From positions 1 to 64,000 of IMG/VR virus record IMGVR_UViG_3300017917_002969: DNA of 64,000 nt; one strand, written 5' to 3'. Below, one piece after another: positions 6,925-55,061 of this stretch (the stretch's first letter is position 1; each line of letters starts with the position of its first letter). The notes under the pieces are model-generated. The model ran no database searches. It saw only the letters and a list, made by a program, of their open reading frames with translations, and was not told where the DNA came from. Both the position numbers and the translations under genes were made by a program. This stretch comes from a virus.

Positions 6925-7377
6925 ATGAGTAGAATATCAAAACAAAAACAACATCTGATTGAGCGTAAAAATAAACAGCTTTTGGGTAAACCAGAAATGG
7001 AATGCCCTGAAGCAACTCAAGATTTGGAGTTAAATACCAAAAATAGAGACGCTGCCATAAGTGAACCACATATTCAATATGGTCCATTAAATGTTGATGA
7101 GCCAGCTGATTTTTGGGAAAAAATAGCTGACCATTGGAATACTAGTGTTGAAGCCGCTATGGAATCTAGATGTGGTAATTGTGTTGCTTTTGATATATCA
7201 CCAAGAATGGATGATTGCATGCCAGGTCCAGTATCTGATGAAGATGGAAGATTAGGGTATTGTTGGATGCATCATTTTAAGTGTCATTCAGCTAGAAGCT
7301 GTAGAACATGGGCGAAGGGTGGTCCAATAGAGGAAGATTCAGTATCATATAAATGGCAAGAAAAAAATGAAAAATAA
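6925..7377 (+). CDS. Cys-rich small protein, possible Fe-S or Zn binder
   Basis: 150 residues. The conserved C-terminal half holds RCGNCVAFDIS, DDCMPGPV, GYCWMHHFKCHSARSC and RTWAKGGPI, with seven Cys and three His. The CxxCxxF and GYCWMH arrangement recalls high-potential iron-sulphur proteins, although Zn binding is equally compatible. It lies in the late operon (3655 promoter) and overlaps the next gene by 11 bases. No family name is claimed; association with the virion or with the neighbouring polyprotein is inferred from context. Confidence 0.65.
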   Translation: MSRISKQKQHLIERKNKQLLGKPEMECPEATQDLELNTKNRDAAISEPHIQYGPLNVDEPADFWEKIADHWNTSVEAAMESRCGNCVAFDISPRMDDCMPGPVSDEDGRLGYCWMHHFKCHSARSCRTWAKGGPIEEDSVSYKWQEKNEK

Positions 7378-9832
7378 TATGAAACCATATAGTGAAGAAA
7401 AAAGTGGTAATATAATTAGAAGAACTTTCTCAAACCTTGTTGAAAGCGAGGAATTGGTATGGCATCGTGATAAAGAAGACAGAATTGTAATTCCTTTAAA
7501 TGAAAATGATTGGTTGGTTCAATTTGACAATGAGCTGCCAAAAAAATTAAATGTTAATGAAGAATTTTTTATACCAAAAAACACTTTTCACAGAGTTATT
7601 AAGGGTTCTGGGGATTTGATGGTGGAGATTATTGAAACGAATTTTGATGATGATTTGGTTGTTTATGAAGCAATTGAAGAAGGAAAGAAGAAAAAGGGTA
7701 AAAAAGACGCTTGTTATCATAAAGTTAGAGCTAGATATGACGTATGGCCATCAGCTTATGCCTGTGTTCCAGAAAATACATCAAAAGCATTAACTAGAGA
7801 TGGTTGGAAACATGTGGATGAATTAAATATTGGTGATGAAATAATGACCTATAATATTGAAAACGATGAATTAGAATTTAAACCAATATTAAATCTCCAC
7901 AGATATAAAGATGTTAAAACAAATGTTGTTAGAAGTGGAAACAATGGCTTTATTTTTGAAGCGACAGATAACCATAAATGGGTTGTTAAATTACCAGAAA
8001 TTAAAGGAAATAGATTGCAAAAATATAATAGAGTAAACGATAAAGCTTTAATTGAGACTAGTGATTTATTAGCAAATAAAAATAATAAAAGTTTGGTTGT
8101 TTCAGCACCATATAATGGTGGTAATAATGTTAAGTTAGATGAAATATTTAAATATGGAACTAACTGGGTTAAATATATTTTAGATATAAGTAGTGAACAA
8201 AGACAAGCGTGGTTATTTAGTGCTATAGTTTATGATGGTAACCAACAAAAAGTAGAAAGATTAACCGAAAATATAAATAATATAGATGACCTAAATTGGC
8301 TATACACTGGTTCACATGGCAAACAATCTTTTGGTTTCAAACAAAAAGATATTGAACATAGAGACGCATTTTTGTTGTCAGCTTTTTTAAACTCTGGCTT
8401 AGTTACTTGGAAAAAAGCTAAAAATAAAGATATTTATTCATGTCATTATACTAGCAATAAACCCCTTAAAAACACATCTAATTTTAAATTAGTTAAAGAA
8501 AATATTTCAGATGTTTGGTGTCCAGAAACAGAAAATGGTACTTGGGTTATGATGCAAGAAACTGAAGGTCGTGGAATTATCACAATAACTGGAAATTCTG
8601 GTGCCCTTGTAAAGTGTCGTAAGGTTGGTGCTGCTAATTGGGGTAATAAGACAAACGAATCAGATGGTGAAAAAATTAATCCAGTTTTTGTAAAAGATTT
8701 TTTAACTGATTTTGGTGTATTAATTTCATTAAATTTTAGTCAAATTACAAAAATGGGTAAAGATTCTGATTCAACAAAAGAATTAGAAGAAATGATGAAA
8801 ACAATTAGAAAACCAATTATAAATGGACAAAATTATTTTGACTTTGTTAAAGATAACATAAATACAATAACTAACAACCCTAAAGTTTTATCAGCTTTAT
8901 TAGGTCAAGTTAGAAATTTATTGATTTATATTGAGCCTAGAGTAGAAAAATTTGTAAAAGACGGACCTGTAAAAATTATTGGTGGTGGTGAAGTTAACTA
9001 TAAAGAAAAGTGGTTAGAAAGAATTAATAAATTAAAAAATGAATATAAAAAAATTATCAATAATTCAGTTAAAGAAGAAACTTCGATTGAAGAAAAGTGG
9101 TCTGAAAAATACAAAAGAAGCATAGATTGCAACAATCCAAAAGGATTTAGTCAAAGAGCGCATTGCCAAGGCAGAAAGAAAACAAATGAATCTGAAGAAG
9201 ACACTAAAGAATTAATTAATTTGGCTCATAGTGCTATTACTAGAAAAAAAGGAAAGGATTATGCACCAGATGTTCATGAATTGCAAGCGTGGATTGATGC
9301 GTATTTAGCTAAAGATAAAAAAATGGATGAGGGAAAAAAGACTGATTTTTCTAAGGAAAAAGAACAAGGTCTTCACGGATGGTTTGCCAGACAAGGTGGT
9401 GAAGGAAAATCACAGGGTTGGGTAGATTGCAACACATGTAGGACAGATAAGGAAACTGGTAGGAAAAAATGCAAACCTTGTGGTAGAAAAGAAGGTGAAA
9501 ACAGAAAATATCCAGCTTGTAGACCAACACCTTCTGCTTGTGGAACACCTAAAAAAGGAAAAAGCTGGGGTAAAAAGGCTGGAAAGGCTAACGAAAACTT
9601 GTCATTACCAGAAAATTTGAGTATTTTTGTTGATAAAACACAAATTAAAAGTATTCTTAGAGAAACATTTAACCAAGAAGATACCATGACAGAACCAATG
9701 ACACAACCAGCGCCAGTTAAACCAAAAGAGGCCCCAACAAAGCCTTTTACTGAACCAGTTAAACCAAGTAGAAAGGATAAACCTTTTCTTCCAATGCCTA
9801 ATGTTCAACCAGACCCAAAAGCTAAAAAATAA
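7367..9832 (+). CDS. Multi-domain cupin-like protein interrupted by an intein
   Basis: 821 residues before splicing. Order: a cupin-like N-terminal domain (about 20-100; ELVWHRDKEDRIVIPL, NDWLVQFDNELPKKL, FIPKNTFHRVIKGSGDL); a small Cys motif ACYHKVRARYDVWPSAYA split from SGALVKCRKVGAANWG by a 278-residue intein; a helical region; EKYKRSIDCNNPKGFSQRAHC; a domain with GLHGWFARQGG, WVDCNTCRTDKETGRKKC and YPACRPTPSACGTP (many Cys); and a Pro-rich tail. A segment near the C-terminus (IKSILRE) resembles the tag of the genes at 25.2-27.3 kb. The first ATG overlaps the previous gene; a second in-frame ATG is at 7379. Role unknown, late operon. Confidence 0.75.
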   Translation: MKNNMKPYSEEKSGNIIRRTFSNLVESEELVWHRDKEDRIVIPLNENDWLVQFDNELPKKLNVNEEFFIPKNTFHRVIKGSGDLMVEIIETNFDDDLVVYEAIEEGKKKKGKKDACYHKVRARYDVWPSAYACVPENTSKALTRDGWKHVDELNIGDEIMTYNIENDELEFKPILNLHRYKDVKTNVVRSGNNGFIFEATDNHKWVVKLPEIKGNRLQKYNRVNDKALIETSDLLANKNNKSLVVSAPYNGGNNVKLDEIFKYGTNWVKYILDISSEQRQAWLFSAIVYDGNQQKVERLTENINNIDDLNWLYTGSHGKQSFGFKQKDIEHRDAFLLSAFLNSGLVTWKKAKNKDIYSCHYTSNKPLKNTSNFKLVKENISDVWCPETENGTWVMMQETEGRGIITITGNSGALVKCRKVGAANWGNKTNESDGEKINPVFVKDFLTDFGVLISLNFSQITKMGKDSDSTKELEEMMKTIRKPIINGQNYFDFVKDNINTITNNPKVLSALLGQVRNLLIYIEPRVEKFVKDGPVKIIGGGEVNYKEKWLERINKLKNEYKKIINNSVKEETSIEEKWSEKYKRSIDCNNPKGFSQRAHCQGRKKTNESEEDTKELINLAHSAITRKKGKDYAPDVHELQAWIDAYLAKDKKMDEGKKTDFSKEKEQGLHGWFARQGGEGKSQGWVDCNTCRTDKETGRKKCKPCGRKEGENRKYPACRPTPSACGTPKKGKSWGKKAGKANENLSLPENLSIFVDKTQIKSILRETFNQEDTMTEPMTQPAPVKPKEAPTKPFTEPVKPSRKDKPFLPMPNVQPDPKAKK
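7763..8596 (+). other. Intein (278 aa) in the cupin-like protein
   Basis: Starts at Cys (residue 133 of the precursor) with CVPENTSKALTRDGW and VDELNIGDEIMTYN (splicing block A). It has a block B-like EATDNHKWVV and a C-terminal end IITITGN followed by Ser, the +1 nucleophile. The usual penultimate His is Gly. The middle holds two weak LAGLIDADG-like stretches (QAWLFSAIVYDG and DAFLLSAFLNSG), suggesting a decayed endonuclease. It splits a short, strongly conserved motif, so splicing is presumably required. Confidence 0.85.
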
Positions 9833-12551: not shown

Positions 12552-15500
12552 ATGCTAACAAAAACAGAGATATTTAAAGAGTATGCGAAGTGTTTGGCTA
12601 GTCCTATCTATGCGATAGAGACTTATCTAGAAACATTCGACAAAACTCAAGAAGGCTTTGTTCCGTTTAAGTTATTCCCAAGACAGAAGGAAATCATACA
12701 TGCTTATGATAAGCATAGGTTTAACCTTATAACCAAACCAAGACAAGCTGGGGTTTCTACAACAACAGCTGCATACATGTCTATTAAGGTTGGTTTTGCC
12801 GATGTAGATAACCCAGAAGCGGTACTAATTATTGCGAACAAACAAGAATTGGCGTTTGAATTCTTAGCCAAGATTAAAGATTTTGTTTCCCAGTTACCTA
12901 GATGGGTTTGGGGAAGCGAATATTACGGAAGCAACAAAAATGAAGAGAAATCAATATTTTTAACAGATTCTAAGAAAGAAATTAAATTGCCTAACGGTAG
13001 TCGTGTAAAGGCAGTTGCCACATCTAAAGATGCGTTGCGTGGTTTTACACCAACATATCTTGTAATGGATGAGGCCGCTTATATTGATAATGGCGCTGAG
13101 GTATTTGGTGCCGCTTTAACTGCGTTAGGTACGGGTGGTAAAGCAACACTTATTTCCACTCCACGTGGTATGGATGCTCTTTATTATAAAACATACGACC
13201 AAGCAAAGAAAAAAGAAAACAACTTCAACATCATTGAGATGAAATGGTATGAAGATTTGCGATACAATAAAGACTTGCGTTGGATTAAGAATGATGTAAT
13301 TGAACCAGAAGTTGAATTTACATTTGGTTCTTATAACCAAAGAATAAGCGAAGGGTGGAAACCCACATCATCTTGGTATGAGGAAATGTGTCGTGGTATG
13401 AACAATGATGCTAAGATGATTGCACAAGAATTGGACGTATCATTTATTGGTTCTGGTGGTAATGTTATTGATGAAGAATACATTGATTTTCAGAACAAAA
13501 ACAATGTTAAAGAACCTTTATATACTGCTGGACCAGAAGGTGAAATATGGATTTGGGCTGAGCCACAAGAAGGTCATCAATACATCATGGGTTGTTTACC
13601 ACCAAATGAAAAAGTGTTAACAAATAATGGGTTAAAAAACATACAAGACGTTGAATTAGATGATATGTTGGTTAGCGAAAATGGTGAATATGTTAACATT
13701 ATTAACAAACAAATTTATCCAGTCATTAATGAAGACATATTTGAAGTTCAAATAGATAATACTTTTAGAACAACAACTTTTACTAAGGAACACCCATTAT
13801 TGGTTAGTAAACCAATACTTAAAAGAAATTATGACAAAAAAAATAATCTTTATAAATTTAACGAGAGATATTGGGATTTTAATTTTAATTTCACTAGAAT
13901 GGAAGAGGTTGAAATTGGAGATTGGGTTAAAGTCCCTAATATTTATAAAAAAGAATTTACTAGTATTTTAGATAATAAATGGTTTATTACGAAAAATATT
14001 AGAAACGATTTTAATATAGCCTCACCATTAAATGATAAAGATTTTTGGTGGTTTATAGGTGTGTGGTTAGGTGATGGATGGTTAGGTAAATTAAATGATA
14101 GTCATACTATATCTATCTGTTTTGATTCTAAAGATGATTATTATTTGAATAAGACAAATGAATTAATTATTAGATTATTTGATAGGTCACCTTCATTTAT
14201 TGATAGAGGTAAAAACACTTTTGAATTGGTGTTCAATTCAAAATTTCTTTACTATTTCATATTAGAAAATTTCGGTCAATATTCTAATGGTAAGAAAATA
14301 AATGAATGGGTTAAATTCATCCCTAAAGATTTTAAAATTGAATTGATTAAAGGTTATTTGGCTAGTGATGGTTCTTGGTTTAAAACTGAAAAAAATGGTA
14401 AGGTAAATTCTAAAATAAGCTTTATTAGTATAAATTTAGAATTATTAGAATCAATTCAAGATATAATATTTTCGTTGGGGGTGATATCGTCATTAAATAA
14501 GTTAAGAAGCGCTAGTAATAGTCATCATATACAAGGCAAACTAGTAAACCAAAAAGAAGCATATAACTTATGTTTGTCCAACCAAGATAGTTTAGATTTG
14601 ATTAATTTATTAAATAATGATGTTTTAGACCCTAAATTAAATAGATTTAAGTTAGATGAATTTAAGACTATTAATAATAGAACTATAAAATCTTGTCATT
14701 TTAGTAAAGATAAAGATTTTATTTATTTTAAAATTAAAAATATTAATAAGAATAAATTTACTGGAAATGTTTATAATTTTGAATGCGATACACACACATT
14801 TATGTGTCATCATATAACAACACATAATTGTGATGTGTCAAGAGGTGATGGAGAGGATTCATCTACAATGGTTATTCTTGATTTTACAACAATGGAACAA
14901 GTTGTTGAATACCAAGGAAAGATACAACCAGATTTGCTAGCTCAAATTGTTGAAGAATACGGAAACCTATACGAAGCATATACGGTTGTCGATGTTACTG
15001 GTGGTATGGGTGTTTCAACGGTTTTAAAGCTTCTTGAGTTCAATTACAAGAGACTTCACTATGATAATCAAAACGGTAAGGTCTTATCTTCAAAACAGAG
15101 AGAATTGTCAAATTATAATAAAGACAATAAAATACCAGGGTTTCACGCAACATCGGTTCGTTTGCCAATGATTTCAAACTTTGAATACAAAATTAGGACT
15201 GATGCTGTTAAGATTCGTTCTGTTAGAATGACATCAGAGATGAAAACATTTATCTATAAGAACGGTAGACCAGACCATATGGAAGGTTATCATGATGATT
15301 TAATTATGGCTATGGCTATGTGTTTATGGGTTGTTGAACATTCATTCAAAAATCTAGAACGTCTTGAGAAGCAGAATAAAGCAATGTTAAGCAGCTGGGT
15401 TATTGGTGGTTCTAATACAATAAAACCAGAATATAAAGCTAATACAACTGATAATCAACCAGTGAATAATAAACCAACAGTTATTAGTAGTTGGATGATT

Positions 15501-15602
15501 GGTGGTGAAAATAAAACCAAACCAAGGGCTAACACATTTGTGAGCAAGAATTTGCAAGACCCAACTGGTCAGTATTCTTGGTTGTTTGGAAGCAAAAAAT
15601 AA
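12552..15602 (+). CDS. Terminase large subunit (gp17-like) with LAGLIDADG intein
   Basis: The packaging motor ATPase and nuclease. 1016 residues as encoded, 604 after intein removal, close to T4 gp17 (610). ATPase: Walker A-like KPRQAGVSTT (62-71), Walker B LVMDEA (170-175), and the coupling-type LISTPRG. Nuclease: the first catalytic Asp lies in CDVSRGDGEDSS, immediately after the intein; later VVDVTGGMG and the acidic YHDDLIMAMAM motif complete the RNase H-like site. The C-terminal tail repeats SSW[VM]IGG twice. It is headed by its own late-type promoter. The T4 order terminase-portal-protease-scaffold-capsid follows. Confidence 0.95.
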   Translation: MLTKTEIFKEYAKCLASPIYAIETYLETFDKTQEGFVPFKLFPRQKEIIHAYDKHRFNLITKPRQAGVSTTTAAYMSIKVGFADVDNPEAVLIIANKQELAFEFLAKIKDFVSQLPRWVWGSEYYGSNKNEEKSIFLTDSKKEIKLPNGSRVKAVATSKDALRGFTPTYLVMDEAAYIDNGAEVFGAALTALGTGGKATLISTPRGMDALYYKTYDQAKKKENNFNIIEMKWYEDLRYNKDLRWIKNDVIEPEVEFTFGSYNQRISEGWKPTSSWYEEMCRGMNNDAKMIAQELDVSFIGSGGNVIDEEYIDFQNKNNVKEPLYTAGPEGEIWIWAEPQEGHQYIMGCLPPNEKVLTNNGLKNIQDVELDDMLVSENGEYVNIINKQIYPVINEDIFEVQIDNTFRTTTFTKEHPLLVSKPILKRNYDKKNNLYKFNERYWDFNFNFTRMEEVEIGDWVKVPNIYKKEFTSILDNKWFITKNIRNDFNIASPLNDKDFWWFIGVWLGDGWLGKLNDSHTISICFDSKDDYYLNKTNELIIRLFDRSPSFIDRGKNTFELVFNSKFLYYFILENFGQYSNGKKINEWVKFIPKDFKIELIKGYLASDGSWFKTEKNGKVNSKISFISINLELLESIQDIIFSLGVISSLNKLRSASNSHHIQGKLVNQKEAYNLCLSNQDSLDLINLLNNDVLDPKLNRFKLDEFKTINNRTIKSCHFSKDKDFIYFKIKNINKNKFTGNVYNFECDTHTFMCHHITTHNCDVSRGDGEDSSTMVILDFTTMEQVVEYQGKIQPDLLAQIVEEYGNLYEAYTVVDVTGGMGVSTVLKLLEFNYKRLHYDNQNGKVLSSKQRELSNYNKDNKIPGFHATSVRLPMISNFEYKIRTDAVKIRSVRMTSEMKTFIYKNGRPDHMEGYHDDLIMAMAMCLWVVEHSFKNLERLEKQNKAMLSSWVIGGSNTIKPEYKANTTDNQPVNNKPTVISSWMIGGENKTKPRANTFVSKNLQDPTGQYSWLFGSKK
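13593..14828 (+). other. Intein (412 aa) with LAGLIDADG endonuclease in terminase
   Basis: Begins CLPPNEKVLTNNGLKNIQ (Cys348 of the precursor) with block B TKEHPLLV, and ends VYNFECDTHTFMCHHITTHN followed by Cys as +1, a canonical class 1 intein. Two LAGLIDADG motifs are clear: FIGVWLGDGWL (DNA about 14050-14083) and LIKGYLASDGSW (about 14342-14378). The insertion point is directly before the nuclease motif CDVSRGDG. Confidence 0.95.
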
Positions 15603-15916: not shown

Positions 15917-18900
15917 ATGGCTGAAAATTTAACAATATTTCAACGACTTGGTAGAATCATCGGGCCAGATGCTATCAAGTCACAACCAAAGCAAACTTCT
16001 CAATCACCAAGATACAATATCAATGGTGATGTTTTGCTTAAAACAGACAACAAAGCTGATTACGAAAGAGCTAAGTTACAAGCCCAGCAAAATAAGTATT
16101 TGGCTCAAATGTGGAAAAAGGTTGAGAGTGGTTTATTCCAACAATCAATCAACTATGAAACAACCCGTATTGGTTCTTATTCAGACTTTGAGGCAATGGA
16201 ATTCTATCCAACCATTGCAGCCGCTTTGGATATTATGATGGAAGAATCGACAACGGTTAACGAAAAAGGTAAAATGCTTAATGTTTATTCAGATAGCAAC
16301 CGTGTTAAGGGTATCCTTGAAGACTTATTTTACAACAGACTTGACATTCATACTTCACTTCCAATGTGGACCAGAAACACACCAATTAGAGAAAATTCAA
16401 TAATTCCGCTATTAGATGGTACCGAATGTACAATTAAAGAATTATCTGATAGGGTTAAAAATGGTGAAGAAATTTGGTCTTACGCTGTCCAAGATAAAAC
16501 AAAAACCATCGTTCCGAGTAAAATTATTTGGTGTGACCTTACTAGGAAAGATAGCGAATTATATAGGGTAACATTAGATGATGGTACTTATATTGATACC
16601 ACGCCAGACCATGAATACATGTTAAGAGATGGTTCTTTTAAAAGAGCAGATAAATTAACTGAAGGTCAATCTTTAATGCCTTTCTATACTAGAAAAAGCG
16701 AAAAAAAGAAAGACAGAATTTCTGGTTATGAAAAAGTTTTTAATCCAAACACTGGAAAATATAAATTCACACACACTATGGTATCTCATGAGTGTGTTAG
16801 AAATTTGGAGAAAGAAAAATTAATTAATGAACAATTTGACACACATCACATTGATTTTAATAAACTAAATAATCACCCAAATAATCTGAAAAGATTGACT
16901 CATTCTGAACATTTCAAACTACATATAGAACATTTTGATAAAATTTTAGGTTCACCAGAAGTTGTTAAAAAAAGAATGGAAGGGATTGATAAATATCTTA
17001 GGTCTGACGAAAGAAGAGAACGTCTTTCGAAAGAAATGAGTGGTTTCTACCCTAAATATTTTAATGAATACAACAATAGCGAATTACACACTAAACATAA
17101 TAAAGTTCGTTCAACTAAAATGTTAAGTAATTGGAGTTCTGATAATTTTATTGTTAAAACTAAAAAAGGAATGACAATTGAAATAACTGATGATTGTTTA
17201 AATTATATTTCTGAATTAATAATATCTAATGAAAAATATGTTGGTGTTAATGAATTGTCTAAGTTACTGAAAAAAGATGAAAAATTTATAAAGTTATTTA
17301 AAATAACTTATACGTTAAAAAAAGATATCCAAAAATCCATAAACCCAACAACAATAAAAAAAGTTATTTTTAGAAAAACGGGTAAAAACTATTTTGATTA
17401 TGCCTTATCAATTAAACCAAGTTTGATTATTGATAAAGCATATATTAAGGCTAAATCTATTTTTATTGGTAAGACCACTTCAAAAATAGTTAATCATAAA
17501 GTTGTTTCGGTTGTTAAATTAGAAGAAACCTCTGATGTTTATTGTTTGGAAGCTGTTGGACCAAATGGAGAACATGATAGACATAATTTTCCTGTCTGTG
17601 GCTTTAACAAAAATAATTCATATTCAAGAAGTTCTGGGGTTTTCTTATCCAACTGTAAGTATGGTGATAACTTTGTTTATTTAAACATTGACGAGAAGTA
17701 TGGTATTCTTAGCGCTAAGCAAATGCCTAACTACGAAATGGAACGTAGAGAAAGTGGATTATTTGATATGATTACTGGTCGTGAAACACCAAACCATCAA
17801 GTTGCTAGTAGCGATAAAACCAAGTTCTATTGGAGAGGACGTGATGTTGAGTTTAATTCGTGGCAAATTGCTCACTTCCGTTTATTGGGTGATGATAGAA
17901 GACTTCCTTACGGTACTTCTGTTTTGGAAAAGGCAAGACGTATTTGGAAGCAACTTATCCTATCTGAAGACTCAATGCTTGTTTATCGTGTTACCCGTGC
18001 ACCAGAAAGACGTGTTTATAAAATCTATGTTGGTAACATAGATGATGCTGATGTACCAGCATATGTAAACGAAATCGCTGATAGATTTAAGCGTATTCCA
18101 ATTGTTGACCCGCAAACTGGTCAAATGGACCTTAGATACAATCAGTTATCTAATGACCAAGATTATTTTATTCCTGTTCGTACTGAAGATGCACCAAATC
18201 CGATTGATACCTTACCAGGTGCTTCAAACTTGGACCAAATTGCAGATATTGAATACTTAAGGAATAACTTATTTACCGCTTTACGTGTACCAAAGCCATT
18301 TTTAGGTTTTGATGAGACTACTGGTGAAGGTAAGAATCTTGCGTTACAAGATATTCGTTTTTCAAGGACGATAAATCGTATCCAGCAATCAATGCTTCAA
18401 GAACTTAACAAGATTGCTATTATTCACTTGTATCTTTTAGGTTTTGAAGAAGACTTTGATAACTTCACAATAACCCTTAATAACCCATCAACACAAGCTG
18501 AAATGCTTAAGGTTGAGCATACACAAGCTAAGGTTACGCTTTACAAGGATGCAGTATCTGATGCTGGTAATGGATTTGCTGCTATGTCAATGACACGTGC
18601 TAAAAGAGAAATTCTTGGTATGTCTGACGATGATATTAAGCAAGACTTGCTTGAACAAAGAATGGAAAAGGCAGCTGCTGCTGAATTGGCTAACTCAGCT
18701 AACGTTATTAAGCATACTGGTATGTTTGATGTTGTTGATAGAATCTATGGTGATATGCAATTGGCTCTACAAGGTGGAGGTGGTGAAGGTGGTGAAAAAG
18801 GTGAAGAAACTAGCAGTGGTGGAGGCGGAGGCGGTGGTCTCGGTGGTTCATTCGGTGGTGGTGGTTTAGGTGGTGAAGACCTAGATTTTGGTGAGGAAGA

Positions 18901-19264
18901 AGCTGGTGGTGAAAGTGAAGCAGCTACAGAAGCTGGTGCTGAAGCAGAGGCTGGTGCTGAACTTGCAGGTGGTGAGGAAGAAGCGGCAGGTGAAGAAGCG
19001 GCTGCTGAAACTGCTCCAACAGAAGTAACAGAATCAATTAAAAAGGTTAATAAATTGCTTAAAGAACAAAAGACTACATTAACCAAAAAAATAAATGATA
19101 GAACCAAAAAATATCAAAACATATTCATAAACAGACTTGTTGAATCAATCAAACCAACAGTTGTTAAAAAGGAAGAGAAGGTTAAGATTTACGACAAGAA
19201 CGTAAAAATAAACAAAGACATTGATACTATGATAAATGATATCAATAAAATGTTGGATGAATAA
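15917..19264 (+). CDS. Portal protein (gp20-like) with HNH intein
   Basis: The dodecameric head vertex through which DNA enters. 1115 residues as encoded, about 691 after splicing. Extein features: TTRIGSYSDFEAMEFYPTI (about residues 80-98), the EDLFYNRLDIHTSLPMWTRN stretch directly before the intein, then CKYGDNFVYLNID, WQIAHFRLLGDDRRLPYG, RAPERRVYKIYVGN and DYFIPVRTEDAPNPIDTLPG, all typical of T4-type portals. After the core (about residue 950) comes a long Gly/Glu/Ala low-complexity linker (DNA 18772-19020) and a basic helical tail, an extension absent from T4 gp20. It lies downstream of terminase without its own octamer. Confidence 0.93.
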   Translation: MAENLTIFQRLGRIIGPDAIKSQPKQTSQSPRYNINGDVLLKTDNKADYERAKLQAQQNKYLAQMWKKVESGLFQQSINYETTRIGSYSDFEAMEFYPTIAAALDIMMEESTTVNEKGKMLNVYSDSNRVKGILEDLFYNRLDIHTSLPMWTRNTPIRENSIIPLLDGTECTIKELSDRVKNGEEIWSYAVQDKTKTIVPSKIIWCDLTRKDSELYRVTLDDGTYIDTTPDHEYMLRDGSFKRADKLTEGQSLMPFYTRKSEKKKDRISGYEKVFNPNTGKYKFTHTMVSHECVRNLEKEKLINEQFDTHHIDFNKLNNHPNNLKRLTHSEHFKLHIEHFDKILGSPEVVKKRMEGIDKYLRSDERRERLSKEMSGFYPKYFNEYNNSELHTKHNKVRSTKMLSNWSSDNFIVKTKKGMTIEITDDCLNYISELIISNEKYVGVNELSKLLKKDEKFIKLFKITYTLKKDIQKSINPTTIKKVIFRKTGKNYFDYALSIKPSLIIDKAYIKAKSIFIGKTTSKIVNHKVVSVVKLEETSDVYCLEAVGPNGEHDRHNFPVCGFNKNNSYSRSSGVFLSNCKYGDNFVYLNIDEKYGILSAKQMPNYEMERRESGLFDMITGRETPNHQVASSDKTKFYWRGRDVEFNSWQIAHFRLLGDDRRLPYGTSVLEKARRIWKQLILSEDSMLVYRVTRAPERRVYKIYVGNIDDADVPAYVNEIADRFKRIPIVDPQTGQMDLRYNQLSNDQDYFIPVRTEDAPNPIDTLPGASNLDQIADIEYLRNNLFTALRVPKPFLGFDETTGEGKNLALQDIRFSRTINRIQQSMLQELNKIAIIHLYLLGFEEDFDNFTITLNNPSTQAEMLKVEHTQAKVTLYKDAVSDAGNGFAAMSMTRAKREILGMSDDDIKQDLLEQRMEKAAAAELANSANVIKHTGMFDVVDRIYGDMQLALQGGGGEGGEKGEETSSGGGGGGGLGGSFGGGGLGGEDLDFGEEEAGGESEAATEAGAEAEAGAELAGGEEEAAGEEAAAETAPTEVTESIKKVNKLLKEQKTTLTKKINDRTKKYQNIFINRLVESIKPTVVKKEEKVKIYDKNVKINKDIDTMINDINKMLDE
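16382..17653 (+). other. Intein (about 424 aa) with HNH endonuclease in portal, atypical ends
   Basis: Starts at about PIRENSIIPLLDGTECTIKE, so its first residue is Pro (or the preceding Thr) instead of Cys or Ser. Block B is TTPDHEYMLRDG. The insert holds an HNH nuclease (THHIDFNKLNNHPNNLKRL, then HSEHFKLH). Block F reads DVYCLEAV and the end is GVFLSN followed by Cys as +1, with Ser in place of the penultimate His. The Cys in block F and the missing nucleophile at position 1 recall class 3 inteins. Confidence 0.88.
18772..19020 (+). repeat. Low-complexity Gly/Glu/Ala coding repeat in portal tail
   Basis: GGT/GGA-rich and GAA/GCT-rich imperfect triplet runs encode a flexible Gly-rich then Ala/Glu-rich linker. 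The region is prone to length change between isolates. Confidence 0.75.
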
Positions 19265-49024: not shown

Positions 49025-49983
49025 TTTTTTTCTTTTTTTTCGTATTTTTTATCTAATTCTTTTTGTCTATATTTTTCAAAAATATCTTCACCATTTATCT
49101 CAACTTTAGCTTTAAATTTAATAACATAATTTCCATCAAATTCGATTATCTTATCAAACAATAAATCAGTGTATTTGTAAAAATAAAAATCATCAACACC
49201 AACTGCACCATCTGTAATAAAAGATACAGTAGATATATCTAACATATTTACCAACATAGGATTTTTAATAGCTTTTTTGATTTCTTTTATAAAAAACACA
49301 CTAGTTTTATTATAATCTTTTGGGTACTTACTGACATAAAATTCTAATAACCTTGTATCATTATCAATATATCTAACAGTTAATTTTTTGGTGTATGCCT
49401 CAATATCAAATTTAGGTACAAATTTTCTCTCAACAATAATATGTCTTTTTGATTTATAAGTTGAATAATATTTGTCACCAGAAATAATCCCTAACGTAGT
49501 CGTACCGCTTTTTGTGTGTAGATTTTCTTCCTTTTCTTCAATACAATTATTTGATAGCGTATCACTAACACTTAATGTTATTTCGTCATTATTAACACAC
49601 ATTTCTAACGGGTAAGTGTCATACTCGTCTAATTTTATATTTTCAAGTTCTTTGGTTTTATTTTTTGTATATGTTCTGGTTATTGGATAACCATCTTCAT
49701 CATACCCAATTATTTCAGTTATATGACCAGAACTTTCCTTAAGAATTTTGTATGTTCTCCATCTTAAATTTCTTACTTCTTCACTGACTTCTCCTTGTAT
49801 TAATGAATCAGCTAATTGACCTTGTGTATTTCTTCTTACGTAATTTACATCATCAGCTAAAGTTTCAGTTTTTTGTCCTAGTGCATTTTTTTCTACATTT
49901 GCTAAAGACAATGATAACTTAACCACATTTTTTTGAATTAATTTTTTTAACTTTTTAATCACAATTCTAAAATTTTTATCCAC
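49021..49983 (-). CDS. Conserved phage protein of unknown function
   Basis: 320 residues. N-terminal basic helix (about 1-25), then NALGQKTETLADDVNYVRRN (about 33-52), TQGQLADSLIQGEVSEEVRN and LRWRTYKILKE. Middle and C-terminal parts are beta-rich with YYSTYKSKRHIIVERKFVPK, ending in a charged helix (KYRQKELDKKYEKKEKK). Proteins with this N-terminal pattern occur in environmental myoviruses, but I know no function. Sitting between glycosyltransferase genes and overlapping both, it may be an acceptor or accessory protein for glycosylation; that is only context. Confidence 0.6.
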   Translation of the reverse strand: MDKNFRIVIKKLKKLIQKNVVKLSLSLANVEKNALGQKTETLADDVNYVRRNTQGQLADSLIQGEVSEEVRNLRWRTYKILKESSGHITEIIGYDEDGYPITRTYTKNKTKELENIKLDEYDTYPLEMCVNNDEITLSVSDTLSNNCIEEKEENLHTKSGTTTLGIISGDKYYSTYKSKRHIIVERKFVPKFDIEAYTKKLTVRYIDNDTRLLEFYVSKYPKDYNKTSVFFIKEIKKAIKNPMLVNMLDISTVSFITDGAVGVDDFYFYKYTDLLFDKIIEFDGNYVIKFKAKVEINGEDIFEKYRQKELDKKYEKKEKK

Positions 49984-51965
49984 TCTTTTAAGATGTCGTT
50001 ATTGCTAATATCTATATTATCATATTCGGTAGATTCATTACCATAAAAAGACACACCAGTTGATAAACATTCGTCTTTGACTAAACAAGCAACTTCACTT
50101 TTAGATGAGTGATAAACTCGACCAATCATGTCATACATTTGTTGTTTATTCTCATAAAAACCCATTACAATTACTTTATCGCTTAACAGCGGTTTAACAA
50201 AATTATCATAATAAACACCGCCTATTTCACCGAATAAGTATATTTTTTCACAACCATCAACTAAGGCTCTATTTATCGACACATGTGTTTGTTTATTCTC
50301 ATCAAAAGAGCCTATAACACCAGCAATTTTATCTAAACCAGTTTTGTCTCTTCTAATAAATTCTTGTTTAAAATTAGGTATTATTTGATACGGGCCATTA
50401 TAATCGCTATGGTATTTTCTATGTTTTTCGTTTAAGAAAACAACTTCATCCCAATATTTAGTTATTTTACCAACCTCGAATAAGTTTTTTTCATGACATG
50501 ATAACACTACTTTACCAGCATTTGGTCTTTTTGGTAAATTTATAAAGTGAGTTATTAACCTATCATTTGGTTTTACACTAAAAGTTTCATCTAGCACTCC
50601 GCTTTTACATTTATCCAAATGCCATTTATGAGGTCCATAAAACGTAGCATCGTATCCAGCGTTATTTAATTCTTTAGTAAGTCTTATTAAAGCAAAGGTA
50701 GAACCTCCTTTATCAGACCAACCACTAACTATTTTTATAGGGCCTTTAATATATTTGTTCAATTTTTTTCTAGTTACAACTTTAGGTTCAAACATTTTTA
50801 TATTATTGCTATCAATAGAAAACTTAGTTATTAAATTATTTTTAATAACATCATCTTTTGCAAAATAGCTAATAACCAAAGGGTCGGTAATTGGAGTGTT
50901 TTCAGGAGAACTTTCTACCGATACAAAATCAAAATCACCATAAAGCTTTTTAAAATGTTCAAATAATTGAGGATTTGTGATGTATATCAAATCAAAGCTA
51001 GGTTCATTTATTTTATATAGATTATTTTCTTTGGATAATACGTAACCATTATCAGTATTAAAACCCCATTTACCGTCACCTAATTTAAACCCAGGTGGTT
51101 CTAATAAATTAGCAACTTTAATGTTGTTATTCTTGAACATTAATTCTTGCTTTTTATTTATCTTAGACATAACAGTCACTGAATGATTATTTTCTTTCAA
51201 TTTTTTTATTATATTCAAAAAGTAAGTTTCGTTTTCACTATCATTTTCCAATGACATCGCTATGAATAAAATTTTTAATTTTTCATTTTTTCTTGTCTTT
51301 TTGTCTATTGTTACTGGTAATTTATCTTTAAACTTATCAACAAATTTTTGTCTATTGACTTCCCACTGTTCGTTAGTCATACCAACAGATTGGTGGTTAA
51401 CCCTAATGATAGTTGTAACACCAATTTTAACACCTTCTAAAAAGTTTTCAAAACAAAAAGTAACATCATAGAAATGAAAACCTTCAACATCTTCGTTAAA
51501 AGTCTTTTTTAACTTGGTTTTATCAACAGCAAAGAATAAACCATCAACTAATACCGTTTCTTCAATCTCTTTTCCTAAATCATCAGAATAACTAGATAAC
51601 CATGTCTTACCTTCATGAGTATGTTGAACTCTTCCATACATTTTTTTAGGATTCTCCCACCATTTTCCACTTTGTGAAAGATATTTGGTCCCAGCAACAC
51701 CTATGATTCCATATTCTTGGTTGTTGGACATCAGCTTTAATAACTTATGTCCCCATTGTTTGGTTTCAATCGTAATATCATCATGACAAAACACAACAAT
51801 ATCATTTGTTGCTTGTTGTAAACCTCTATTGTAAGCCTTTGTTAACGCCTCTCCATTGTTTACAATTTCAATTATTTCTAAATGTTTATGTAACCCAGAC
51901 GTTTTGATTAAATGTTCTTTATGTTCTGGTTTTGACTCTCTGGTGCAATATACTATTGTTAACAT
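49959..51965 (-). CDS. Two-domain glycosyltransferase (GT-A plus GT-B)
   Basis: 668 residues. N-terminal GT2-like domain: TIVYCTRESKPEHKEHL, EALTKAYNRGLQQATNDIVV, FCHDDITIETKQWGHKLL with the DD metal site (about 60-64), and HFYDVTFCFENFLEGVKIG. C-terminal GT-B-like part (about 230-668): KLKILFIAMSLENDSEN, GPIKIVSGWSDKGGSTFALI, YNGPYQIIPNFKQEFIR, and YFYGNESTEYDN-like donor-side residues near the end. A bifunctional polymer-building enzyme is plausible. ATG overlaps the upstream stop (TAATG) of the IMPDH fragment, so the glycan cluster is transcriptionally linked to nucleotide metabolism. Confidence 0.78.
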   Translation of the reverse strand: MLTIVYCTRESKPEHKEHLIKTSGLHKHLEIIEIVNNGEALTKAYNRGLQQATNDIVVFCHDDITIETKQWGHKLLKLMSNNQEYGIIGVAGTKYLSQSGKWWENPKKMYGRVQHTHEGKTWLSSYSDDLGKEIEETVLVDGLFFAVDKTKLKKTFNEDVEGFHFYDVTFCFENFLEGVKIGVTTIIRVNHQSVGMTNEQWEVNRQKFVDKFKDKLPVTIDKKTRKNEKLKILFIAMSLENDSENETYFLNIIKKLKENNHSVTVMSKINKKQELMFKNNNIKVANLLEPPGFKLGDGKWGFNTDNGYVLSKENNLYKINEPSFDLIYITNPQLFEHFKKLYGDFDFVSVESSPENTPITDPLVISYFAKDDVIKNNLITKFSIDSNNIKMFEPKVVTRKKLNKYIKGPIKIVSGWSDKGGSTFALIRLTKELNNAGYDATFYGPHKWHLDKCKSGVLDETFSVKPNDRLITHFINLPKRPNAGKVVLSCHEKNLFEVGKITKYWDEVVFLNEKHRKYHSDYNGPYQIIPNFKQEFIRRDKTGLDKIAGVIGSFDENKQTHVSINRALVDGCEKIYLFGEIGGVYYDNFVKPLLSDKVIVMGFYENKQQMYDMIGRVYHSSKSEVACLVKDECLSTGVSFYGNESTEYDNIDISNNDILKEWIKILEL

Positions 51966-52633
51966 TACTTTTTAAATCTATTATATGCGTTATCAGTTAT
52001 TCTAATGATATTTGCTTGACCTATAAATTCATCCAAATTAAGCGCATTAGAATAACTCATTGCTGAACGTAGATAAGCCTCAAAGTTTTCAACCCATTGT
52101 GCTAACCTATATTCAACTTTTCTAAATCTAATAACACCTTCTGAAGTTGTCAATACTTCTTTACCCCATTTTTTCTGAACTTCTTTGGTGCTCATACCTC
52201 TGAATTTTTTAGTAACTGGTATCTTATTGTTATAAGCCCATTCAGCTATCTTTTGATTTACCTTAAGTTTACCCCACAAATAGTTTTCACCACACGATTC
52301 TATTGCTTTGTTAAATAAGCTTCCAACCATTACATAATCAGCACCAAGGGCCAAAGCTTTAATAATGTCACTGTATGTTTGCATACCACCATCAGCCACA
52401 ATCTTTGCAGGTTTATCTAACCACAAAGAAGTATTATAACATTCTTGAATTAAAGATGCCATAGGATAACCAACACCAGTATGAACGGTTGTACTACAAT
52501 TATGTACGATATGTTTATTAACATGGTACGAATGATTTTCATTAACAGTAATATCATATAACATATTATATGATTCTGTCTTAAAAGGCTCAATACTTTC
52601 TATTTCTTTTAGTTTATATTTTTTTAGTTTCAT
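51965..52633 (-). CDS. guaB/guaC-like: IMP dehydrogenase/GMP reductase C-terminal half with C-intein
   Basis: 222 residues. Residues 1-45 form a C-terminal split intein (YNMLYDITVNENHSYHV, ending HIVHN), followed by extein starting at the catalytic Cys: CSTTVHTGVGYPMASLIQE, then KIVADGGMQTYSDIIKALAL (phosphate-binding region), GADYVMVGSLF, and GVIRFRKVEYRLAQWVENFE. The +1 residue of the intein is therefore the enzyme's active-site Cys. No CBS domain in either half; joined length about 330, near GMP reductase size. Needs trans-splicing with the product of 53685-54458. The start overlaps the endonuclease gene by 20 bases. Confidence 0.9.
   Translation of the reverse strand: MKLKKYKLKEIESIEPFKTESYNMLYDITVNENHSYHVNKHIVHNCSTTVHTGVGYPMASLIQECYNTSLWLDKPAKIVADGGMQTYSDIIKALALGADYVMVGSLFNKAIESCGENYLWGKLKVNQKIAEWAYNNKIPVTKKFRGMSTKEVQKKWGKEVLTTSEGVIRFRKVEYRLAQWVENFEAYLRSAMSYSNALNLDEFIGQANIIRITDNAYNRFKK
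52499..52633 (-). other. Split intein, C-terminal part (45 aa)
   Basis: Block F/G: LYDITVNENHSYHV and HIVHN followed by Cys. With the N-part at 53688-53996 it makes a complete split intein lacking any internal endonuclease. The sequence is very similar in layout to the environmental IMPDH-1 split intein. Confidence 0.9.
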
Positions 52634-53645
52634 CGTATATTTTTTTTAATTTATTTATGAAATTTAAAGATTTAACATGTTTATCGCTAACTCTAATTAA
52701 TATAAAGTTATTTAATTTAGCTATTTTATTTTTTAATATATCATTAGTTTTAGCCTCATCTGATGAATGCCAAAACTCACCATCTAATTCAATTAATATT
52801 TTCCCACCTAATTTATAATCAAAAACTTTTCCACCTAATTCAAAAGAACTTGAAACTGATTTACCAAAATAAAATTTTAAAACATTATAAAAATCAATTT
52901 CAATTTGGCTATGTTTAACAAATTTAACTTTTTTTAATTCATCAAATGTTAAATTTTCTTTTAAAAACCAACCAAGATAATTTTTATTAATATCTAACCC
53001 AACGACTGTTATTATTTGATTAAATGTAACCTTATCGTTTTCTTTTAATAGTTCTTTAATTATTGGTAACGAATTATTTAAAAATTCAATAACATTATTA
53101 TTAGGTGTTATTGGTTTATTTAACCATTTTGTTTTAGATTTCAAACATATTCGTTTAAAAATTTCTTTATTTTTAACCAACCCAGCTTTAAACCAATAAC
53201 TTTTTAATGTTCTAAAATCAATTGATATGTTTTTAGATAGGACACTGATTGGTTTATTTAAATTTATGAAATCATCATACGTTTTTTTTAGTTCATCATA
53301 TGTTATACCAGTTTTTTCCAATAAAAAGTTTAAATTATCATATTTTTCTTTCGATTTTTTTATTTTTAATAAAACATCATTAGACTGAACTACAAAATTT
53401 TTATGATTCGAAAAATATTTTAAATATTTACCTTTATGAAATTTAGTTTTATTACCGCAACCGCAAGCGCAAACCCCTTCGTTATCCTTTAAAAAGTATT
53501 TAGTATAATATTCCTCGTTAGTCATATTATGTAACATTTTTAAATGATTACTAAAAGACAAAAAATTTTTATTATCAGTTTCTTTATCAAAGGTTTGGTT
53601 ACATTCCAAACAAACACATTTTTCAAGAAAATATTTTTTTAGCAT
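52614..53645 (-). CDS. Free-standing homing endonuclease in the split IMPDH/GMPR gene
   Basis: 343 residues. N-terminus: a Cys2His2-like finger (CVCLECNQTFD, then FSNHLKMLHNMT), then a second Cys/His cluster GVCACGCGNKTKFHKGKYLK (about 58-77). The middle is helical, with repeat-like DNA-binding helices. The C-terminal nuclease (about 250-335) has SQIEIDFYNVLKFYFG, VFDYKLGGKILIELDGEFWH and IRVSDKHVKS, the Glu, Asp, His and Asp arrangement of Vsr-like EDxHD homing endonucleases described with fractured genes. It has its own late-type promoter and overlaps the downstream fragment by 20 bases. Confidence 0.8.
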   Translation of the reverse strand: MLKKYFLEKCVCLECNQTFDKETDNKNFLSFSNHLKMLHNMTNEEYYTKYFLKDNEGVCACGCGNKTKFHKGKYLKYFSNHKNFVVQSNDVLLKIKKSKEKYDNLNFLLEKTGITYDELKKTYDDFINLNKPISVLSKNISIDFRTLKSYWFKAGLVKNKEIFKRICLKSKTKWLNKPITPNNNVIEFLNNSLPIIKELLKENDKVTFNQIITVVGLDINKNYLGWFLKENLTFDELKKVKFVKHSQIEIDFYNVLKFYFGKSVSSSFELGGKVFDYKLGGKILIELDGEFWHSSDEAKTNDILKNKIAKLNNFILIRVSDKHVKSLNFINKLKKIYDETKKI

Positions 53646-53657
53646 ATCTAGTTTTGT

Positions 53658-53665
53658 TATAAATA
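53658..53665 (-). promoter_or_regulatory. Late-type promoter octamer TATTTATA (minus strand)
   Basis: Plus-strand TATAAATA, reading TATTTATA preceded by CA on the minus strand, 12 bases before the endonuclease ATG at 53645. The spacing matches that of the endonuclease in thyA (octamer 442-449). Confidence 0.65.
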
Positions 53666-53684
53666 TGTCGAACTTATTAAAAAG

Positions 53685-54458
53685 TTAAACATTTTCCACA
53701 TATTCCAATAAAAAATACTCGTTTGTTAAATTTTCAGCTTTAACCCACTCAGCATAATTATGAATATTATCATCATTAATCAAATCAATATGTTTTTTAC
53801 TCACAACATAATATTCATGCGTTTTTGTTGAAACCGAATCATTAATTTTAATTAATTCTTCTCTACTAGGATATGCAATAGTGCTAATAACTTCTTTGTA
53901 TTCACCAGTATGTGTCAAAACAAAATCACCTATTATAACATCTTGAATCGATTTATTACCCGATTTTGTTGTTACAATGGAATTTTCTAAAAAACAACCA
54001 CCACCATTTCCAATACCAACTCTAATATAATCTGCTCCAGCATCTGATAACTCACCATAAGTTTTTGGGTTAGCTATATTACCAACCATCAGTGTTAAAT
54101 TATTGTATTGTTTTTTTATTTTTTTGGTTGTCTCCAAAAGAGTATCCATGTGTCCATTGGCAATATCAATCAAATAAAACCCATTTTTATCTAAGTCATC
54201 ACTTAAATATTTTTCCCACATTTCTTGTAACGAATATGATTCAAAACCTATGTTAGTTTTTTCACCTCTAGGTAAACAAACATTTATTTTTTGGTTGTAA
54301 AAAATTTGTTCATTACCAGAATTAATTACCATATCCATAGGTGCTGTTATCAAAGGTAAAAACCCATTATAATAAGGATTGATATCCTTTCGGCTATTTA
54401 TTTTAGAAACTATCGCTGGTTCAATTAAAATATCGTTAAAATCAAATTTTTCAGTCAT
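53685..54458 (-). CDS. guaB/guaC-like: IMP dehydrogenase/GMP reductase N-terminal half with N-intein
   Basis: 257 residues. Extein 1-154: FDFNDILIEPAIVSKINSRK, PLITAPMDMVINSGNEQIFY, NGFYLIDIANGHMDTLLETT, LTLMVGNIANPKTYGELSDA and DYIRVGIGNGGG, the beta/alpha barrel of the IMPDH/GMPR family up to the catalytic loop. Residues 155-257 are an N-terminal split intein starting CFLENSIVTTKSG. In characterised relatives, the enzyme interconverts IMP with XMP or GMP. Downstream of dut in the host-promoter transcript. Confidence 0.9.
   Translation of the reverse strand: MTEKFDFNDILIEPAIVSKINSRKDINPYYNGFLPLITAPMDMVINSGNEQIFYNQKINVCLPRGEKTNIGFESYSLQEMWEKYLSDDLDKNGFYLIDIANGHMDTLLETTKKIKKQYNNLTLMVGNIANPKTYGELSDAGADYIRVGIGNGGGCFLENSIVTTKSGNKSIQDVIIGDFVLTHTGEYKEVISTIAYPSREELIKINDSVSTKTHEYYVVSKKHIDLINDDNIHNYAEWVKAENLTNEYFLLEYVENV
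53688..53996 (-). other. Split intein, N-terminal part (103 aa)
   Basis: Cys1 with CFLENSIVTTKSGNKSIQ and VIIGDFVLTHTGEYKEV (block A), block B STKTHEYYVV, and a long charged tail with DNIHNYAEWVKAENL. The IHxxAxWVxAE signature and length correspond to the IMPDH-1 split intein from ocean metagenomes. No endonuclease domain; the endonuclease is encoded separately just downstream. Confidence 0.92.
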
Positions 54459-54479: not shown

Positions 54480-55061
54480 TTAATTTTTTCCAGTGCTACC
54501 AAAACCACCAGAACCTCTTTCTGTAGATGAATTAATATTATCAAGCTTTTCTAACTTAATAATATTCTTTGCTGTTACGGTAGCTATAACACCTTGAGCT
54601 ACTCTATCACCATGATTGATAACAAAATCTTCTTCACCTAAATTGATAAGTATAATCTTTATTTCGCCACGGTAATCTGAATCAACCGTTCCTGGTGTAT
54701 TTAACACAGTAACACCGTTTTTAGCAGCCAAACCACTTCTCGGACGGACTTGGATTTCAAATCCATCTGGCAATTCAAAAAATAAACCAGTTGGTACCAA
54801 GGCTCTTTTGCCAGCCTTAATTGTCATTGGTTCAGAAAGATTTGCTCTAAAATCAAAACCAGATGAACCAGCTGTTGCATATTCTGGGTCTGGGTTGGTT
54901 GATTTATTTGCAAAACCTACTTTTAATTTAAAATAATCTGGGTCATAGAAAATTTCTGTTGGATAAGAAAATTCTCTGTCAAAGTCTTCTTGACTATATG
55001 AGTCATTTGGGTCAGATATTTGTAGGATTCTAGCCCTCATCCTTTCAACTAAATCGTTCAT
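54480..55061 (-). CDS. dut: dUTP diphosphatase
   Basis: 193 residues. Hydrolyses dUTP to dUMP, keeping uracil out of DNA and supplying thymidylate synthase. All five trimeric dUTPase motifs are visible: AGSSGFDFRA (about 64-73), VRPRSGLA, NTPGTVDSDYRGEIKI, GDRVAQGVI and a C-terminal arm ERGSGGFGSTG. An N-terminal helical extension of about 45 residues is longer than in typical enzymes. It lies between the HD-like gene and the split IMPDH gene, in the transcript from the host-type promoter at 55662. Confidence 0.97.
   Translation of the reverse strand: MNDLVERMRARILQISDPNDSYSQEDFDREFSYPTEIFYDPDYFKLKVGFANKSTNPDPEYATAGSSGFDFRANLSEPMTIKAGKRALVPTGLFFELPDGFEIQVRPRSGLAAKNGVTVLNTPGTVDSDYRGEIKIILINLGEEDFVINHGDRVAQGVIATVTAKNIIKLEKLDNINSSTERGSGGFGSTGKN

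What the first reader, a model, noticed from the sequence alone, without database searches (positions are those of the whole stretch)
51965..54458. IMP dehydrogenase/GMP reductase fractured by an endonuclease gene and rejoined by a split intein
Seen: N-half plus 103-residue N-intein, then a separate EDxHD-type endonuclease gene, then a 45-residue C-intein plus C-half. The splice point lies exactly before the catalytic Cys, which doubles as the +1 nucleophile. Known: this arrangement was described from ocean metagenomes as fractured genes with an IMPDH-1 split intein. Here it can be placed in a T4-like genome, between dut and a glycan cluster.
Basis: partly seen in the sequence, partly recalled or inferred. 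Interest (0 to 1): 0.8.

Follow-up and report, generated by a model that had tools for sequence, protein, structure and literature searches.

The report
Phage enzyme gene split by intein
A T4-like phage carries a GMP-reductase-like enzyme gene broken in two by a mobile cassette (two intein halves around a DNA-cutting enzyme gene), and the two protein halves very probably rejoin themselves at the enzyme's catalytic cysteine; it is a new case of a known arrangement, at a splice site that differs from the published one.

Summary
On the minus strand lie a 257-aa N-precursor (154 N-extein + 103 N-intein), a 343-aa nuclease gene and a 222-aa C-precursor (45 C-intein + 177 C-extein). Without the cassette the flanks make a 331-aa, 37.5-kDa enzyme that aligns without a gap at the junction to intact alleles in phages with the same gene order (HD gene, dut, enzyme, glycosyltransferase). 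Key splicing residues are present; Cys+1 aligns with the catalytic Cys of IMPDH/GMPR. Four more fractured alleles use the same site. In the enzyme tree they lie among intact alleles, and cassette similarity is out of step with the flanking genes, so the cassette spreads horizontally. The nuclease resembles I-Bth0305I, the solved EDxHD/Vsr homing endonuclease. Two corrections: active-site residues fit GMP reductase better than IMP dehydrogenase; and this is not the published IMPDH-1 intein, which splices GGG|SIC with Ser+1, whereas here it is GNGGG|C with Cys+1, two residues further on. A related phage is fractured at another site of the same gene family. Trans-splicing and DNA cutting are inferred, not shown. 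New member of a known kind (fractured genes).

The parts
53997..54458 (-). N-extein (residues 1-154) of the GMP reductase-like enzyme, ending ...VGIGNGGG
53685..53996 (-). N-intein, 103 aa, Cys1 first, block B T57-x-x-H60, plus stop codon
53658..53668 (-). Promoter-like element ACATATTTATA upstream of the nuclease gene; ACATATTTAT kept in all five fractured alleles
   Evidence: function inferred
52614..53645 (-). Free-standing nuclease gene, 343 aa: N-terminal Cys/His (zinc-finger-like) region and C-terminal EDxHD/Vsr-like domain
52617..52901 (-). EDxHD/Vsr-like nuclease domain, residues 249-343 (E249, D276, H293, D302 invariant)
52499..52633 (-). C-intein, 45 aa, ending ...IVHN; its first 20 bp overlap the end of the nuclease gene
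52496..52498 (-). Codon of Cys+1, which aligns with the catalytic Cys of IMPDH/GMPR
51965..52498 (-). C-extein, 177 aa, of the GMP reductase-like enzyme (includes stop codon)
52499..53996 (-). Whole inserted cassette (N-intein, nuclease gene, C-intein), 1498 bp, absent from intact alleles

Best explanation
This is a fractured gene: a GMP reductase-like enzyme gene of a T4-like phage has been invaded at its catalytic loop by a mobile cassette made of a split intein with an EDxHD/Vsr-family homing endonuclease gene between its halves. The two precursors are made separately, the intein halves associate and trans-splice through Cys1, Asn148 and Cys+1, and the joined 331-aa enzyme regains its loop, with the +1 Cys now serving as the catalytic Cys. 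The nuclease, possibly transcribed together with the C-half from a promoter element inside the cassette, would cut intact alleles near the site so that repair copies in the whole cassette. Shown: anatomy, exact empty sites, conserved splicing residues, recurrence in five phages, purifying selection, signs of horizontal spread. Inferred: trans-splicing, cutting, GMP reductase activity, promoter activity.
For: Fragment anatomy and both Hint halves; gap-free joined flanks against intact alleles in the same gene order; splicing residues invariant in the alleles compared; five alleles at the same codon with the same nuclease family; dN/dS 0.07-0.22 in all parts among window, L013 and L014; nuclease model matches I-Bth0305I, probability 1.00; fractured alleles scattered among intact ones in the enzyme tree; cassette and extein-plus-flank proteins support conflicting topologies (AU p 0.029 and 0.041) with reversed similarity ranks; C-x-T, GMS flap and SEG Glu as in GMPR.
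Against: No splicing or cutting was observed. The nuclease matches are weak in sequence (E 0.042) and the Foldseek E-value is 0.022. DNA-level topology tests of the cassette are not significant. The enzyme scores far below curated GMPR cut-offs, so its activity is uncertain. The TATTTATA element is a motif count only.
Confidence: 0.86

Rival explanations
1. It is simply the published IMPDH-1 split intein found again in a phage genome.
For: Same enzyme superfamily, same catalytic loop, similar fragment sizes (106/42 published; 103/45 here), GGG before the junction in both.
Against: GPGSIC of solved enzymes aligns without a gap with GNGGGC here, which puts GGG|SIC two residues upstream; +1 is Ser there and Cys here. 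Homology of the two inteins was not tested because the original sequences are not held.
Confidence: 0.08
2. Dead gene: splicing has been lost and the two halves are decaying remnants; only the nuclease matters.
For: The gene is physically broken and no splicing data exist.
Against: All catalytic and splicing residues are kept in five alleles; extein dN/dS about 0.10-0.17 among window, L013 and L014; both halves open in all five.
Confidence: 0.04
3. The intein spread or was inherited without the nuclease, which is an unrelated free-standing nuclease that entered the intein later and cuts somewhere else.
For: The published model of fractured genes has the nuclease inserted into the intein; L103 carries a related intein with a different 382-aa nuclease.
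Against: At the site studied the same nuclease family accompanies the intein in five of five alleles, and intein and nuclease proteins favour the same topology.
Confidence: 0.1

Closest known systems
Fractured genes with split inteins (Dassa et al. 2009, doi 10.1093/nar/gkp095; paper not held, known here through citations), especially the IMPDH-1 split intein
   Same: Enzyme gene broken by a split intein with a free-standing nuclease gene between the halves; Vsr-related EDxHD nuclease; same enzyme superfamily and same loop
   Different: Splice junction GNGGG|C instead of GGG|SIC, Cys+1 instead of Ser+1, 103/45 instead of 106/42 residues, GMP reductase-like host enzyme
Fractured DNA polymerase B of Pseudomonas phage MIJ3 (PMC6892783)
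   Same: Split intein halves flanking a nuclease gene in a sequenced phage genome
   Different: Other host gene; HNH nuclease
I-Bth0305I homing endonuclease catalytic domain (PDB 3r3p)
   Same: Best sequence-profile and structural match of the nuclease domain
   Different: About 18% identity; 3r3p is annotated as a mobile intron protein, not intein-associated
Human GMP reductase 2 (PDB 2bzn, 2c6q) and bacterial IMP dehydrogenase catalytic domains
   Same: C-x-T loop, GMS flap and SEG Glu as in GMPR2; structural TM-score about 0.80 for the intact relative L001
   Different: About 26% identity; GNGGGC instead of GPGSVC; far below curated GMPR cut-offs

Membership tests
Fractured gene with split intein | Conserved enzyme gene broken in two ORFs whose join restores an intact enzyme | tested here: met
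   Joined flanks align gap-free at the junction to intact alleles
Fractured gene with split intein | N- and C-intein halves with conserved splicing residues at the break | tested here: met
   Cys1, T57, H60, D130, H147, N148 invariant; C-terminal motif over cut-off
Fractured gene with split intein | Free-standing nuclease gene between the halves | tested here: met
   343-aa ORF with own start and stop
Fractured gene with split intein | Protein trans-splicing occurs | not testable with these tools
   Needs expression of both precursors
IMPDH-1 split intein | Insertion between GGG and SIC, Ser at +1 | tested here: not met
   GGG|C with Cys+1, two residues downstream
EDxHD (Vsr-related) homing endonuclease | Fold of the I-Bth0305I catalytic domain with conserved E, D, H, D | tested here: met
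   Best structural match 3r3p, probability 1.00 though E 0.022; E249, D276, H293, D302 invariant in four alleles
EDxHD (Vsr-related) homing endonuclease | Cuts the empty allele at or near the insertion site | not testable with these tools
   Needs purified protein; horizontal spread is indirect support
IMP dehydrogenase | Arg-Tyr catalytic pair in the flap | tested here: not met
   Lys-Glu or similar at the aligned place in intact relatives
GMP reductase | Catalytic Cys, Thr at Cys+2 and Glu of the SEG motif | tested here: met
   Invariant in 60 of 60 intact relatives, aligned with GMPR2
GMP reductase | Passes a curated GMPR family score | tested here: not met
   Best NF003470, 124 bits against a cut-off of 397: a divergent relative only

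The most novel reading that the evidence does not exclude
Because the +1 nucleophile is the catalytic Cys, splicing and catalysis share one thiol: the enzyme stays off until splicing is complete, and oxidation or modification of that Cys could stall both. The split intein may then act as a post-translational, possibly redox-sensitive switch on purine metabolism during infection rather than as a mere parasite.
Probability: 0.08. Interest if true: 0.75.

Novelty: new member of a known kind. Interest (0 to 1): 0.46.

Why it matters
It offers invaded and empty alleles of a fractured gene at one syntenic place in long phage contigs, so homing of a split-intein cassette by an EDxHD nuclease becomes directly testable. 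[quoted passage not shown]

Tried and rejected
Papers on GMP reductase or IMP dehydrogenase inteins in phages: none found. GenBank phages: no relative of the nuclease, and intein relatives only at 42% identity or less. Bacterial and archaeal genomes: only remote intein matches. Rfam: nothing in the window, so no known intron family is involved. T4 late promoter TATAAATA in sense orientation: not upstream of the nuclease; the conserved element is its reverse complement. Fold comparison does not choose between IMPDH and GMPR. DNA-level topology tests of the cassette alone were inconclusive.

Full report
What is there. On the minus strand of the window, between dut (55061..54480) and a glycosyltransferase gene (51965..49959), lie three ORFs (families): 54458..53685 (257 aa), 53645..52614 (343 aa) and 52633..51965 (222 aa). 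The first ends in a 103-residue N-intein that begins with Cys directly after VGIGNGGG; the third begins with a 45-residue C-intein ending IVHN directly before CSTTVHTGVGYP. Joined, the exteins make 331 aa, 37.46 kDa.

Empty sites. Scans of IMG/VR found intact alleles at up to 79% identity. The joined flanks align to them across the junction without a gap, in protein and in DNA. Fifteen of the intact loci checked share the surroundings HD-domain gene - dut - enzyme - glycosyltransferase, and so do the fractured L013 and L014 and L124. The inserted unit is therefore 53996..52499, 1,498 bp. Four further fractured alleles with the same order and the same codon were found: L013 (3300002307_002134), L014 (3300032241_002679), L102 (3300044712_002679, other surroundings) and L124 (3300023242_000003; the stretch fetched is identical to L123 from another sample). 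N-inteins are 103 aa in all five, C-inteins 45-46, nucleases 341-348. In all five the start of the C-precursor overlaps the end of the nuclease gene by 17-23 bp (coordinates), which suggests translational coupling (inference).

Splicing competence. Cys1, T57 and H60 (block B), D130 (block F), H147 and N148 are invariant in the five inteins aligned, which include the L103 intein from another site, and Cys+1 is kept in all five alleles of this site. The C-terminal splicing motif just passes its curated cut-off. Among window, L013 and L014, dN/dS (NG86) is 0.10-0.17 for exteins, 0.07-0.12 for the intein and 0.15-0.22 for the nuclease, so all parts look maintained. Whether splicing happens was not tested.

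The enzyme. The joined protein matches the IMPDH/GMPR superfamily. The predicted structure of the intact relative L001 (mean pLDDT 89) matches IMPDH and GMPR structures almost equally, so the fold does not choose. The residues do: in 60 of 60 intact relatives there are Cys, Thr at Cys+2, a GMS flap and a Glu aligned with the SEG Glu of human GMPR2, while the Arg-Tyr pair of IMPDH is missing (the roles of these residues are general knowledge). I read it as a divergent GMP reductase; it lies far below curated GMPR cut-offs.

Not IMPDH-1. The published IMPDH-1 split intein leaves GGG-SIC (PMC12350263), has Ser at +1 and fragments of 106 and 42 residues (PMC11766414). GPGSIC of solved enzymes aligns gap-free with GNGGGC here, so that site is two residues upstream. 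By insertion site this is a different intein allele; whether the two inteins are homologous could not be tested. I also cannot exclude that the 2009 survey, not held here, lists this site.

The nuclease. It has no match in GenBank phages. A profile of three alleles finds 3r3p, the I-Bth0305I catalytic domain, at E 0.042; a model of the protein (mean pLDDT 69) has 3r3p as best structural match, probability 1.00, E 0.022. E249, D276, H293 and D302 are invariant in four alleles, in line with the EDxHD name. The N-terminal Cys/His region weakly resembles Ros/MucR zinc fingers.

Movement. In the enzyme tree the fractured alleles lie among intact ones. For the four alleles sharing flanking genes, similarity ranks reverse: exteins, window-L124 74% and window-L014 65%; cassette, 61% and 74%. 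Extein plus dut plus HD proteins support window+L013 and reject L013+L014 (AU p 0.041); cassette proteins support L013+L014 and reject window+L013 (p 0.029). DNA-level tests of the cassette are inconclusive. dS between window and L013 is 1.85 in exteins, 0.84 in the intein and 0.76 in the nuclease (exteins are near saturation, and base composition differs). Together this favours horizontal spread of the cassette as a unit; it does not prove cutting.

Control element. ACATATTTAT precedes the nuclease start in all five alleles. TATTTATA occurs within 60 nt upstream of 10 of 64 window genes, against 2 of 64 for its reverse complement, which is equally frequent overall. It is probably a phage promoter element, and the cassette may bring its own. 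From memory, the 2009 paper also reports control elements brought in with the nuclease gene.

Wider picture. L103 (3300037104_000796) has a related split intein in the same enzyme family at another place, KALALG|SDYVM, with a different nuclease of 382 aa; that place is in the most conserved 11-residue window of the enzyme (rank 1 of 320), whereas the window's site ranks 55. L106 (3300020048_000348) has what reads as a fractured type IIA topoisomerase (assigned by eye). A fractured polymerase in an isolated jumbo phage is published (PMC6892783). The window's own phage, T4-like by capsid, portal and terminase, has two more inteins.

Verdict. Observation confirmed; interpretation right in kind, wrong in equating it with IMPDH-1 and probably in the IMPDH half of the name. 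Interest is moderate: the unusual points are the Cys shared by splicing and catalysis, and the invaded and empty alleles side by side.

Noticed in passing
window 15917-19264 (+): The T4-like portal gene carries an intein (residues about 163-546) with HNH-type nuclease matches.
   Followed up: partly
window 12552-15602 (+): The terminase large subunit ORF (1016 aa) contains a LAGLIDADG domain within weak intein matches (about residues 379-759), so the phage probably has three inteins.
   Followed up: partly
L103:3278-6012: A relative of the same enzyme is fractured at a second site (KALALG|SDYVM, Ser+1) by a related split intein with a different 382-aa nuclease.
   Followed up: partly
L106:2480-7199: Apparent fractured type IIA topoisomerase: N-half with N-intein, a 326-aa nuclease gene, C-intein with C-half (assigned by eye).
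   Followed up: no
window, upstream of 462, 2371, 12552, 21068, 25889, 60143 (+) and 28702, 32151, 53645, 60081 (-): TATTTATA, about 11-31 nt before the start codon, precedes 10 of 64 genes, against 2 of 64 for the reverse complement; it looks like a phage promoter element.
   Followed up: partly
L013:3851-4537 and 7277-8110; L014:1189-3342; L001:871-3228: The neighbourhood of the enzyme gene in relatives holds other apparent mobile elements: a nuclease-like gene between dut and the enzyme, another inside the downstream glycosyltransferase region, and an intein or gap in the upstream glycosyltransferase (assigned by eye).
   Followed up: no
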